A stretch of 64,000 nt of DNA from Prochlorococcus marinus CUG1438 (GTDB taxonomy: Bacteria; Cyanobacteriota; Cyanobacteriia; PCC-6307; Cyanobiaceae): NCBI GenBank assembly GCA_017644325.1, contig JAEPLS010000002.1, positions 186,001 through 250,000 on the forward strand. The letters run 5' to 3'. Below the pieces are notes generated by a model, which worked only from the letters and a program-made list of their open reading frames with translations, had not been told where the DNA came from and did no database searches. Positions 57,490-60,942 of the stretch are shown here, in pieces. The stretch's first letter is position 1. Each line of letters opens with the position of its first letter. The position numbers and the translations under genes are program-made.

Positions 57490-58074
57490 ATGAGCTTAAG
57501 AGTTGGCCAAGAAGCACCAGATTTTAGTGCTACAGCAGTATATGATCAAGAGTTTAAGGAGATTACACTTTCAGGTCTAAAAGGTAAATGGGTTGTTTTA
57601 TTCTTCTACCCATTAGACTTTACGTTTGTATGTCCTACTGAAATCACTGCATTTAGTGATAGATATCAAGATTTCTCATCACTAAATACAGAAATCCTTG
57701 GTGTATCAGTTGATAGTAAACACTGTCATTTAGCTTGGATACAGACTCCAAGAAATGAAGGTGGAATAGGTGATATTAATTATCCATTAGTATCTGACTT
57801 AAAAAGAGAAATTTGCCAGGCATACAATGTTCTTAACGATGATGGCGAGGCAGATAGAGGTTTATTCCTTATTAATCCTGAAGGAATAGTTATGCACACG
57901 ACTGTGAACAAAGCTCCTGTTGGCAGAAATGTTGATGAAACACTTAGAATCCTACAAGGTTATCAATACGTTGCGGCAAACCCAGATGAAGTATGTCCAG
58001 CAAACTGGACCCCAGGAGAGAAAACAATGTTAGAGGACCCCAAAGGTAGTAAGGAATATTTTTCTGCTCTATAG
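57490..58074 (+). CDS. 2-Cys peroxiredoxin (AhpC/TSA typical)
   Basis: 194 residues. Reduces H2O2 and alkyl peroxides with thioredoxin as donor. Seen: [38 protein letters not shown] (peroxidatic Cys in FVCP), [37 protein letters not shown], and the C-terminal resolving cysteine in [20 protein letters not shown] and the C-terminal YF-like EYFSAL suggest the peroxide-sensitive type. Strong own promoter. Confidence 0.97.
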
Positions 58075-58089
58075 AAGAAATACTAACTT

Positions 58090-58842
58090 TTAAGTAAGTA
58101 TCGAGTAGTAAATTATTATAAAGAAATAGAAAATAAACATATTCAGTAATGGGATAATATCACTTTTTTGAGGTATTCGAACTATCCAATCGCTTAAATT
58201 AGTTCTATACGATAAAAAAGACCACGTAAAATAAAAAACCTCTGTAACTATTAAAATAAAAACATTAATTAAATTAATATTATTTAAACCAAAATATCTA
58301 TAATTATGAAACTGATCATCAATACCAATATTATTAATTTGAAGATACCAAATGTAAAAAGAAATCAAGAAAAAGTTTCCTAATATTAATTTTTTAAAAA
58401 AAATCCTAAATATTTTGAAATTCAATAAGATAGCGATTAAAAAAACTAATATACTCAACTGAAATACATTGGGTTGAATTAAATTGAATTCTTCGAGAAA
58501 TAAATTAAATACAAAATCAACATTTACATACATATAAGAAATTATTAAATACGAGAGAAAAGTCAAATTTATTAAAACTAAGTACAATAATAATTTCCCT
58601 TTAATAGGATTTTTACTATAAATTTTATTCTTATTAAATTTATAATATGTATAATTATTTAAAGAGTTCAAACATATTAGAAATGGACATATAGTACCGC
58701 TCAAATAGTAAAGAATTGAATAAAAAGTAATATTATTAGTATTGAATAAATATAAATTGGACCATTGTTTTTGCACAAATGGAAGAATAAGCAAAAATGA
58801 AAGTGTAACTAGTAAGCCTGTAGAATCTTTTTTAATTATCAA
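58090..58842 (-). CDS. Seven-TM membrane protein, unrecognised
   Basis: 250 residues with about seven hydrophobic segments (roughly 8-23, 38-60, 83-106, 127-149, 152-169, 188-211, 229-249). The most distinctive loop is SYRTNLSDWIVRIPQKSDII PLLNMF near the C-terminus. No family recognised; the composition is Ile/Phe/Asn/Tyr-rich. Its start is 40 bp downstream of the ftsH-like stop on the same strand, so the two are probably cotranscribed and might work together at the membrane. Confidence 0.75.
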   Translation of the reverse strand: MIIKKDSTGLLVTLSFLLILPFVQKQWSNLYLFNTNNITFYSILYYLSGTICPFLICLNSLNNYTYYKFNKNKIYSKNPIKGKLLLYLVLINLTFLSYLIISYMYVNVDFVFNLFLEEFNLIQPNVFQLSILVFLIAILLNFKIFRIFFKKLILGNFFLISFYIWYLQINNIGIDDQFHNYRYFGLNNINLINVFILIVTEVFYFTWSFLSYRTNLSDWIVRIPQKSDIIPLLNMFIFYFFIIIYYSILT

Positions 58843-58882: not shown

Positions 58883-60637
58883 TCAAATTTTCAACAATTT
58901 AGATGTTATTGATTTAAAAACTTGATTATCTATAGTTTCTAGGTTTAAAAGCATATCAACTAATTTATCAAGTAAAACTCTATTTTTTTTCAATATTTCT
59001 ATTGAATTATTTAATGAAATCTTAGAAATCTTTATGATTTCATTATCTATTCTAGAACTAGTGTTTTCAGCTATGAGAGGCTTTCTTCTAAATAATCCAT
59101 CTCCCAAAAAAATTTCATTATTATCAGAGTCCATTGAAATCGGACCAATAATTGAAAAACCATATTTTGTAACCATTTCTCTTACGATGTTCGTCGAATA
59201 GGAAATATCATTTATGGAACATTGCGTAATTTCACTTTCTCCAAAAACTATCGTTTCGGCTGCCCTTCCAGCTAGAGCAATTTCAATTTTTGAAATTAAT
59301 AATTTTTTTGAAATCAATCCACTAGCAATTACATCTTCGTCAGGGCATATTTTTGTATATCCTCCTAGAGATCCAGATCTAGGTAAAATTGTAATTTTAT
59401 CAACTGATTCAATTCCATTTCTCACGGCAGATACGATAGCTCTACCAACTTCGTTATAAGCAATAATTTTCTTCATATTTGGAGAAGTTATTAATGAGCT
59501 TCTTAGGCCAATGGTAATTTTATCAAGAGCATTTTCTATATGAACATCACTGATTAATTTAGATTCATCTCTTGCACAGTGAATAGCACTCTCGTTCATC
59601 AAATTTGCAAGATCGGCCCCTGAAAATCCAACAGTTCTAGAAGCCCAATATCCTAAGTCAACTTCGCGTGAAAGTGGTTTTGAGAGTGAGTGAACAGAAA
59701 GAATTTTTTTTCTTCCATTTAAATCTGGAAGCATTACTTCTATTTTTCTATCAAATCTTCCTGGCCTTAATAATGCTGTATCCAAAATATCTGGTCTATT
59801 TGTTGCAGCTAAAACAATAATCCCGGAATTATCAGCAAAACCATCTAATTCTGTAAGAAGCTGATTAAGGGTTTGTTCTCTTTCATCATTTCCACCTCCG
59901 ATCCCAGAGCCTCTTTGCCTACCAATAGAATCAATTTCATCGATGAAAATTATACAAGGCGATTTTTCCTTAGCCTTAGAAAATAGATCCCGAACTCGGC
60001 TTGCACCAACACCAACAAAAAGTTCTACAAACTCTGAAGCCGATATTGAGAGAAAAGGCACTCCTGATTCCCCAGCAATTGCTTTAGCCAATAATGTTTT
60101 ACCTGTTCCTGGTGGCCCAATTAGAAGAACTCCCTTAGGAACTTTTGCTCCAAGATTTTCAAATTTCTTTGGTTCTTTCAAAAATGTTATTACCTCTTTT
60201 AATTCCTCAGCGGCTTCAGGGACACCAGCTACATCATCGAATCTAGTTTCTACATCATCAATGGTTACAAATTTAGCTTGATTTTTAGTAAAACCAAAAG
60301 CTCTAGAAGCCAATTTTGATGTACTCCTCAAGATTAAGATTATAGCTAATATGAAAATCAGGAAAAGACTTATTGAAGCAAATGAATTAGCAGCTGAGGC
60401 TTCTTTTCTACTGTTATTAATAGAGAGAGCTACCTTATTTTCAGTAGCCTTTTCAAGAATTAATTGATCATTGAAAAGGATAGGTATTTTAAATTTATCA
60501 CCATTTTTGTACAGAACATCAATTTCTCTCTGCCTAGGATAGAAAAATATTGATTCTATTTTCCCTGTCTCAATATCTTCTAGAAGATCCGAATAACTTG
60601 ATTTAGAATCTGAATATGAGAATTTTGATCTAAACAC
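58883..60637 (-). CDS. FtsH homologue without zinc-protease motif (FtsHi-like)
   Basis: 584-residue AAA+ membrane protein. ATPase looks intact: Walker A GPPGTGKT (174-181), pore loop FVGVG (207-211), Walker B IIFIDEID (229-236), SRH with RPGRFDR (291-297). In the peptidase domain the HExGH zinc site is NEVGR (395-399), so both histidine ligands are lost; the third ligand Asp (SINDIS, D477) remains. The N-terminus starts directly with the extracytoplasmic domain ([17 protein letters not shown]); only one membrane helix (86-104) is present. Start is GTG at 60635-60637 with an in-frame stop three codons upstream, so TM1 is truly absent. Likely a non-proteolytic unfoldase or regulator; inference. 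Confidence 0.93.
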
Positions 60638-60768: not shown

Positions 60769-60942
60769 ATGGCTGTACCAAAGAAGAAAAAATCAAAGAG
60801 CAAAAGGAACCAAAGGCATGCTGTCTGGAAAGGGAAAGCAGCAATAGCAGCTCAAAAGGCTTTATCTTTAGGTAAATCAGTTTTAACTGGTAAAGCTCAA
60901 GGTTTTGTTTATCCTATTGATGAAGAAGAAGAAGAAGAATAG
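60769..60942 (+). CDS. rpmF: 50S ribosomal protein L32
   Basis: 57 residues: [40 protein letters not shown] and [13 protein letters not shown]. Complete L32, zinc-free form with an acidic Glu tail. Divergent from the ftsH-like gene (131 bp between starts) and convergent with the Ycf20-like gene (3 bp apart). Confidence 0.96.

What the first reader, a model, noticed from the sequence alone, without database searches (positions are those of the whole stretch)
59441..59455. FtsH homologue with a dead zinc-protease site (HExGH changed to NEVGR)
At the position of the FtsH metalloprotease motif the codons read AAC GAA GTT GGT AGA. Both His ligands are replaced while the Glu, the third ligand Asp477, and all ATPase motifs (Walker A/B, pore loop FVG, SRH arginines) are kept. 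Selection appears to have preserved the unfoldase but removed proteolysis. Plants have FtsHi paralogues of this kind in chloroplasts; a free-living cyanobacterium with one in a highly reduced genome is notable.
Basis: partly seen in the sequence, partly recalled or inferred. Interest (0 to 1): 0.78.

Follow-up and report, generated by a model that had tools for sequence, protein, structure and literature searches.

The report
Protease-dead FtsH across streamlined Prochlorococcus
One of the four FtsH membrane proteins of this ocean cyanobacterium has lost the zinc site that cuts proteins but kept its ATP-driven unfolding motor, a change shared by a whole branch of Prochlorococcus that gives a simple bacterial system for asking what such a motor does without its blade.

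Summary
The minus-strand gene 58883-60637 is an FtsH homologue whose zinc motif reads NEVGR (59441-59455). It is neither an error nor a local mutation: 123 of 124 loci of the genus read NEVGR and one NEGGR. Published primers identify it as Prochlorococcus FtsH4, homologous to Synechocystis FtsH1. Of 64 orthologues read across the family, 40 keep HE[V/I]GH and 24 are dead; the dead ones belong to genera of one species-tree clade, from which no active one was read. In all 24 the second histidine is Arg or Lys; the first histidine, the Glu and the Asp vary. Every ATPase motif survives. The ATPase part evolves under strong constraint (dN/dS 0.042), the dead domain under weaker but real constraint (0.115).

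Best reading: a protease-dead motor subunit, probably partnering the homologue of Synechocystis FtsH3, which keeps its zinc site. That partnership is inferred, not shown. An inactive FtsH in P. marinus SS120 is already in print (PMC6460958). The clade-wide extent, the order of decay, the fixed basic residue and the missing first transmembrane helix were not found in print in the searches named.

The parts
58883..60637 (-). FtsH homologue, 584 aa, GTG start; Prochlorococcus FtsH4, homologue of Synechocystis FtsH1; protease-dead
   Evidence: of the genome's four FtsH loci it fits both published MED4 FtsH4 primers best (2 and 5 mismatches)
59441..59455 (-). NEVGR (residues 395-399) in place of HExGH
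   Evidence: census
59207..59209 (-). Asp477, position of the third zinc ligand; kept here, not throughout the dead clade
60095..60118 (-). Walker A GPPGTGKT (174-181)
60011..60019 (-). pore-loop FVG (207-209)
59930..59947 (-). Walker B FIDEID (231-236)
59756..59758 (-). Arg294 of RPGRFD (second region of homology)
60329..60385 (-). only transmembrane helix found, about residues 85-103 (the second helix of other FtsH); no first helix
   Evidence: hydropathy; N-termini; in-frame stop before GTG
60769..60942 (+). rpmF (ribosomal protein L32), divergent neighbour; this order is kept in active and dead orthologues
   Evidence: 58 of 63 loci; of the five misses two are truncated stretches and three full-length ones
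57490..58074 (+). peroxiredoxin gene, neighbour on the other side
   Evidence: sequence; relative found in 15 of 23 dead-lineage loci and in none of 40 active ones, in stretches with only a short flank on that side

Best explanation
The gene encodes a membrane-anchored FtsH subunit that has lost zinc binding and proteolysis but still works as an ATP-driven unfoldase ring subunit. In the common ancestor of one Prochlorococcus clade the second zinc histidine became Arg (or Lys), possibly in one base change (CAT to CGT). The first histidine, the catalytic Glu and the Asp ligand then changed separately in descendants, while the motor and a basic residue at the second-His position were kept. Most likely the protein, like its homologue Synechocystis FtsH1, sits in a mixed hexamer with the FtsH3-type subunit (Prochlorococcus FtsH2, HEAGH intact). 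It supplies grip, unfolding and specificity, and the partner supplies the cutting sites. Shown: sequence, conservation, clade pattern, selection on the ATPase. Inferred: no proteolysis, order of the changes, hexamer partner, substrates.
For: Motif and census. ATPase motifs kept in all 64 orthologues read: Walker A as G[PSL]PGTGKT, pore FVG or FIG, Walker B, arginine finger. Of columns with one residue in at least 97% of 40 active rows, 113 of 141 AAA columns but 18 of 53 M41 columns keep it in at least 90% of 16 dead rows. dN/dS 0.042 for AAA and 0.115 for M41. The dead rows form one clade in the gene tree (11 rows, SH-aLRT 98, quick tree) and in an independent rpoB tree (15 dead rows plus G160, SH-aLRT 91). 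Orthology is backed by the divergent rpmF in 58 of 63 loci and an ungapped N-domain of 112 residues. Primers: own L001, L002, L003 and L004 fit MED4 FtsH2, FtsH1, FtsH3 and FtsH4 respectively, each best by both primers. [quoted passage not shown] FtsH1/3 is an essential plasma-membrane heterocomplex (PMC11287208, passages); [quoted passage not shown]
Against: No physical evidence of a mixed hexamer in Prochlorococcus. The MED4 ftsH transcript pool is described as more evenly balanced between isoforms 1, 2 and 3, so FtsH4 is not a major transcript there; an ocean metaproteome figure, by its legend, shows FtsH1-3 detections and no FtsH4 column (PMC11262661, passages). The whole gene evolves faster than its paralogues (AAA dN/dS 0.042 against 0.007-0.015). 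Some related genomes have no orthologue found (G126, 99% complete, three FtsH only; G098, 97% complete, only paralogue-level hits), so the function is dispensable in places.
Confidence: 0.52

Rival explanations
1. It forms a homomeric, non-proteolytic motor that unfolds or extracts membrane proteins as a chaperone, much as plant FtsHi proteins are thought to act in a heteromeric import motor.
For: All motor motifs kept; the folded model matches Ycf2-FtsHi motor chains among others (8xku_E, Z 29.7); plant FtsHi act in an ATP-driven import complex (PMC11266112, passage).
Against: The closest characterised homologue, FtsH1, works with FtsH3 in one complex. Fold matches to FtsHi chains rank below an E. 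coli FtsH model, T. maritima FtsH, AFG3L2 and YME1.
Confidence: 0.22
2. It is a gene in slow decay: the protease site, then the M41 domain, are drifting on the way to loss, with the ATPase lagging behind.
For: Catalytic residues differ between dead lineages; M41 distance relative to rpoB is 17.8 in dead pairs against 10.8 in active pairs; no orthologue found in several genomes.
Against: dN/dS is far below 1 in every domain; none of the 78 orthologue-level matches of the genus holds a stop, and 28 of the 29 genomes of at least 90% completeness carry one (both counted from the listing); the basic residue is never lost in the dead rows. The clearest absence (G126) lies in the sister clade, where 14 of 21 genomes have the active form and none a dead one.
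Confidence: 0.14
3. It is a regulatory brake: as an inactive subunit it dilutes active FtsH rings and so protects substrates such as transcriptional repressors.
For: Synechocystis FtsH1/3 controls Fur and PhoU levels (PMC11287208); replacing one subunit type with a dead one would lower cutting capacity per ring (inference).
Against: A brake need not keep the ATPase so strictly; nothing here ties expression to nutrient state.
Confidence: 0.08
4. The site still binds a metal and cuts through other ligands.
For: Glu396 and Asp477 are still present in the window.
Against: Both His ligands are gone, the second is Arg or Lys in all 24 dead orthologues read, and Glu and Asp are also lost in relatives.
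Confidence: 0.02

Closest known systems
Synechocystis FtsH1 (slr1390), partner in the FtsH1/3 heterocomplex
   Different: Orthologues of this family have one transmembrane helix (60 of 64) and the dead clade lacks HExGH. No Synechocystis sequence was in hand, so the identity rests on the papers.
FtsHi of P. marinus SS120 (Mishra 2019, PMC6460958)
   Same: Reported as one inactive FtsH in a Prochlorococcus genome (passages); very likely the same orthologue.
   Different: The passages seen give no motif, extent, order of loss or cause; SS120 was not identified by name among the genomes here.
Plant chloroplast FtsHi1-5 and the Ycf2-FtsHi motor
   Same: FtsH homologues without HExxH; four of five keep a GPPGxGKT Walker A (table in PMC11266112).
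   Different: Separate origin: the window's nearest relatives are active orthologues at the same genome place. In a PDB search with the M41 domain Arabidopsis FtsHi2 and FtsHi1 score 42 and 28 bits, bacterial FtsH 64-121.
Active FtsH1-type orthologues in other genomes of the family (small LL-Prochlorococcus-like and larger Synechococcus-like; names not given)
   Same: Same N-domain, mostly one helix, same rpmF neighbour.
   Different: HE[V/I]GH and the Asp kept in 40 of 40.

Membership tests
FtsH (TIGR01241) | score above the curated cut-off | tested here: met
   646 bits against 600
FtsH | AAA ATPase with Walker A/B, FVG pore loop and second region of homology | tested here: met
FtsH | HExxH plus Asp zinc site | tested here: not met
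   NEVGR; Asp kept
FtsH | one or two N-terminal transmembrane helices (layout as given in PMC9020784, passage) | tested here: met
   one helix by hydropathy; FtsH_ext 27.2 bits against 25.5. The two-helix layout of the genome's other FtsH is not met
FtsHi (inactive FtsH as used in PMC6460958) | FtsH with AAA domain and without HEXXH in M41 | tested here: met
Plant FtsHi lineage (common descent of the loss) | loss of HExxH shared with plant FtsHi | tested here: not met
   loss lies inside the family, with active orthologues around it; PDB scores agree. No tree with plant sequences was made
FtsH1-type orthologue | groups with one FtsH class of other cyanobacteria; conserved neighbour within the family | tested here: met
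   the name FtsH1 rests on PMC6300248
FtsH1/3 heterocomplex | physical partnership with the FtsH3-type subunit | not testable with these tools
   needs purification
Zinc metalloprotease activity | proteolysis and bound zinc | not testable with these tools
   needs assay

The most novel reading that the evidence does not exclude
In this clade the zinc site was not merely lost but rebuilt: a basic residue took the place of the second zinc histidine and has been held by selection since, perhaps making a salt bridge with acidic residues of the former site so that a metal-free M41 ring stays folded as a passive exit or docking ring. FtsH was thereby converted from protease to pure motor in a free-living bacterium, with intermediate stages still alive (HEIGK, HEAGR, HQIGK).
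Probability: 0.33. Interest if true: 0.66.

Novelty: new variant of a known kind. Interest (0 to 1): 0.52.

Why it matters
Inactive FtsH proteins are known mainly from chloroplasts, where null mutants of four of the five Arabidopsis FtsHi genes are embryo-lethal (table in PMC9020784). Here one bacterial family carries active, half-decayed and fully dead versions of one orthologue beside the same neighbour gene, so loss of a protease site can be ordered and tested by swapping orthologues. If it partners the FtsH3-type subunit, some of the most abundant phototrophs of the ocean run a housekeeping protease on fewer cutting sites. The gene is also a warning for annotation: NCBI's model passes it as a zinc metalloprotease.

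Tried and rejected
Sequencing error or local mutation: rejected by 123 of 124 loci. Repeated independent loss of the site: not favoured, since the dead rows form one clade in the gene tree (98) and the rpoB tree (91) and share a basic second-His position. Both trees are quick searches: the careful gene tree did not finish, and the rpoB tree was run as quick; long branches, some of them dead rows, are flagged in the gene tree. Asp477 as a conserved relic: rejected for the clade. Descent of the loss shared with plant FtsHi: not supported.

The second, of residues 105-584 with 42 rows, reached pLDDT 77.7 and pTM 0.67 and matches FtsH structures. That match is partly built in, because 38 of the 42 rows are FtsH pieces from viral contigs. 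The salt-bridge idea could not be measured: no coordinates were laid in the Python box.

Neutral simulation of the basic residue: at scale 2, where a His start gives 6.1 changes on average (6 observed at the first His), all tips stayed R/K in 0.27% of 3000 runs, and in none with four or more changes. At the larger scales tried the share was 0.0000; smaller scales were not tried. It assumes the rpoB topology and a composition and kappa that I chose.

The dN/dS figures are Nei-Gojobori means over 10 pairs of 5 genomes of one genus, with no likelihood test; dS is 1.3-1.5 for FtsH3, so its ratio is rough. Distances to rpoB: 89 of 91 dead pairs (2 with rpoB distance under 0.02 dropped) and 136 active pairs. 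The 16 dead rows are 4 of the 12 read from the genus plus all 12 read from outside it; the other 8 were left out as near-duplicates. The rpoB tree holds 15 of the 24 dead genomes read: of the genus only 4 of 12 were asked for, and G193 gave only a fragment. Of the active ones G107, G140 and G142 gave no rpoB match and G121 a fragment; G102, G122, G244, G361 and most larger-genome rows were not asked for.

Paper searches for prior reports: (PubMed Central open licences only); only the SS120 statement and its repetition were found. sought heterocomplex work.

Full report
The observation. The minus strand at 59441-59455 reads AAC GAA GTT GGT AGA, N395-E-V-G-R399, within a 584-codon FtsH gene, 58883-60637. 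The protein passes the FtsH equivalog model and matches AAA, AAA lid, Peptidase_M41 and FtsH_ext. Its three paralogues in the same 1.63-Mb genome keep HEAGH, HEVGH and HEVGH.

Which FtsH it is. All eight published MED4 primers were compared with the genome's four FtsH loci: both FtsH4 primers fit the window gene best (5 and 2 mismatches), and the FtsH1, FtsH2 and FtsH3 pairs fit the HEVGH locus L002, the HEAGH locus L001 and the HEVGH locus L003 (4-7 mismatches, earlier). That paper places picocyanobacterial FtsH4 with Synechocystis FtsH1, 'less obvious than the others', and FtsH2 with Synechocystis FtsH3 (PMC6300248, section 22). A tree of 62 FtsH proteins puts the window group beside the fourth FtsH class of five other cyanobacteria and apart from the classes of the three paralogues; it is a quick tree rooted at the midpoint for drawing. 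Within the family a divergent rpmF lies upstream in 58 of 63 loci examined; two of the five misses are truncated stretches, three are full-length ones in which my pattern found none. The peroxiredoxin gene on the other side was found in 15 of 23 dead-lineage loci and in none of 40 active ones, in short flanks.

Extent of the dead motif. In a search of 101 genomes of the genus, 78 gave orthologue-level matches (232 bits or more, against 135 or less for the next), none with an internal stop; 28 of the 29 genomes of at least 90% completeness are among them, the exception being G098 (counted by me from the listing). Motifs were read in 124 loci: 123 NEVGR and 1 NEGGR, 97 distinct C-terminal sequences. 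In a 300-genome search of the family 229 matched at E 1e-41 or better. I read 64 orthologues in full. Forty keep HE[V/I]GH. Twenty-four are dead: 12 of the genus and 12 from six other genus codes, with motifs NEVGK, HEAGR, QIIGK, NEAGK, YEIGR, RNASK, HEIGK, HQIGK (two), QQVGR, RESAR and NEVGR.

One event or many. An rpoB tree of 40 genomes, built without reference to FtsH, puts all 15 dead genomes it contains in one clade of 16 (SH-aLRT 91); the sixteenth, G160, is 76% complete and gave no orthologue. The sister clade of 21 holds 14 active genomes and 7 in which none was found. The FtsH tree agrees (98). The simplest account is one loss on the stem of this clade. Separately, the orthologue was not found in 15 of 32 chosen genomes; most are incomplete, but G126 is 99% complete and has only three FtsH genes.

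Order of decay. In 16 dead rows the second His is R (9) or K (7); the first His is N, H, Q, Y or R; the Glu is E, Q, I or N; the Asp is D, N, E, Q or H; in 40 active rows all four are invariant. On the rpoB tree, among 15 dead rows, the first His needs at least six changes over five states, the second at least five, all between R and K. A neutral simulation calibrated to the first His kept all tips at R or K in 0.27% of 3000 runs. Arg is encoded as CGT in two rows and AGA in others, and most active relatives read have CAT, so H to R by CAT to CGT is a possible first step. That the residue is held for a structural reason is inference.

Selection. Nei-Gojobori means over ten pairs of five genomes give dN/dS 0.058, 0.042 and 0.115 for the N-domain, AAA and M41 parts of this gene, against 0.007-0.020, 0.007-0.015 and 0.012-0.035 in the paralogues. 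So every part, including the dead domain, is under purifying selection, but the gene is less constrained than its paralogues. Against rpoB distances the AAA part evolves about as fast in dead as in active pairs (6.6 against 5.5 times) while the M41 part is faster (17.8 against 10.8). Of columns nearly invariant in active rows, dead rows keep 113 of 141 in AAA, 18 of 53 in M41 and 5 of 9 in the N part.

Topology. The gene starts at GTG with an in-frame TAA three codons before it, and its N-terminus begins close to the external domain. Hydropathy on stop-to-stop frames finds one transmembrane helix in 60 of 64 orthologues and two in the other four, of which the two printed are long upstream frames; in the other three classes 31 of 32 rows have two. 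Active orthologues share the single helix, so it precedes the loss of catalysis. How an N-domain of about 80 residues crosses the membrane without a first helix is unexplained.

Fold. A model of residues 105-584 (pLDDT 77.7) matches FtsH, AFG3L2, YME1 and Ycf2-FtsHi chains. Its alignment was mostly FtsH pieces from viral contigs, so this shows compatibility, not independent proof.

Mechanism. Shown: the zinc ligands are gone and the motor motifs are kept under selection. [quoted passage not shown] the original was not read). Inferred: the window protein is a motor-only subunit in a mixed ring whose cutting is done by the FtsH3-type partner (about 0.52). Rivals are a homomeric chaperone motor, slow decay and a regulatory brake. 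Against a major role, the MED4 transcript pool is described as balanced between isoforms 1, 2 and 3, and the legend of an ocean metaproteome figure names FtsH1-3 only (PMC11262661, passages).

Novelty. One FtsHi in P. marinus SS120 is stated in PMC6460958 and repeated in PMC8197885 (passages). The passages seen of a 2024 review of inactive metallopeptidases give only the plant FtsHi for this family, and the word Prochlorococcus does not occur in it (PMC11266112). In the searches named under Tried and rejected I found nothing on the clade-wide extent, the single loss, the fixed basic residue or the missing first helix.

Noticed in passing
window 60329-60637 and orthologues: The orthologue group of this family, active and dead, mostly lacks the first transmembrane helix of FtsH while keeping the external domain and second helix; 8 of 18 FtsH1-type frames outside the family show a weak first hydrophobic stretch.
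   Followed up: partly
genomes G126 (99% complete), G098 (97% complete): No orthologue found; G126 has only three FtsH genes. Since FtsH1/3 is called essential in Synechocystis, these absences deserve a check.
   Followed up: partly
L314-L393: Viral contigs of IMG/VR hold FtsH-like proteins 45-52% identical to the window protein (best 80 of 112 kept). Of 38 aligned, the 19 displayed keep HExGH.
   Followed up: no
window 58090-58842 (-): A hydrophobic 250-aa reading frame between the FtsH and peroxiredoxin genes, 37-62% identical among the 11 loci of the genus searched and not found by tblastn in the loci from outside it, whose flanks are short.
   Followed up: no
L198 (G413): A fifth, long-branched FtsH in another cyanobacterium, near the class of own FtsH L003, with HEVGH kept.
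   Followed up: no
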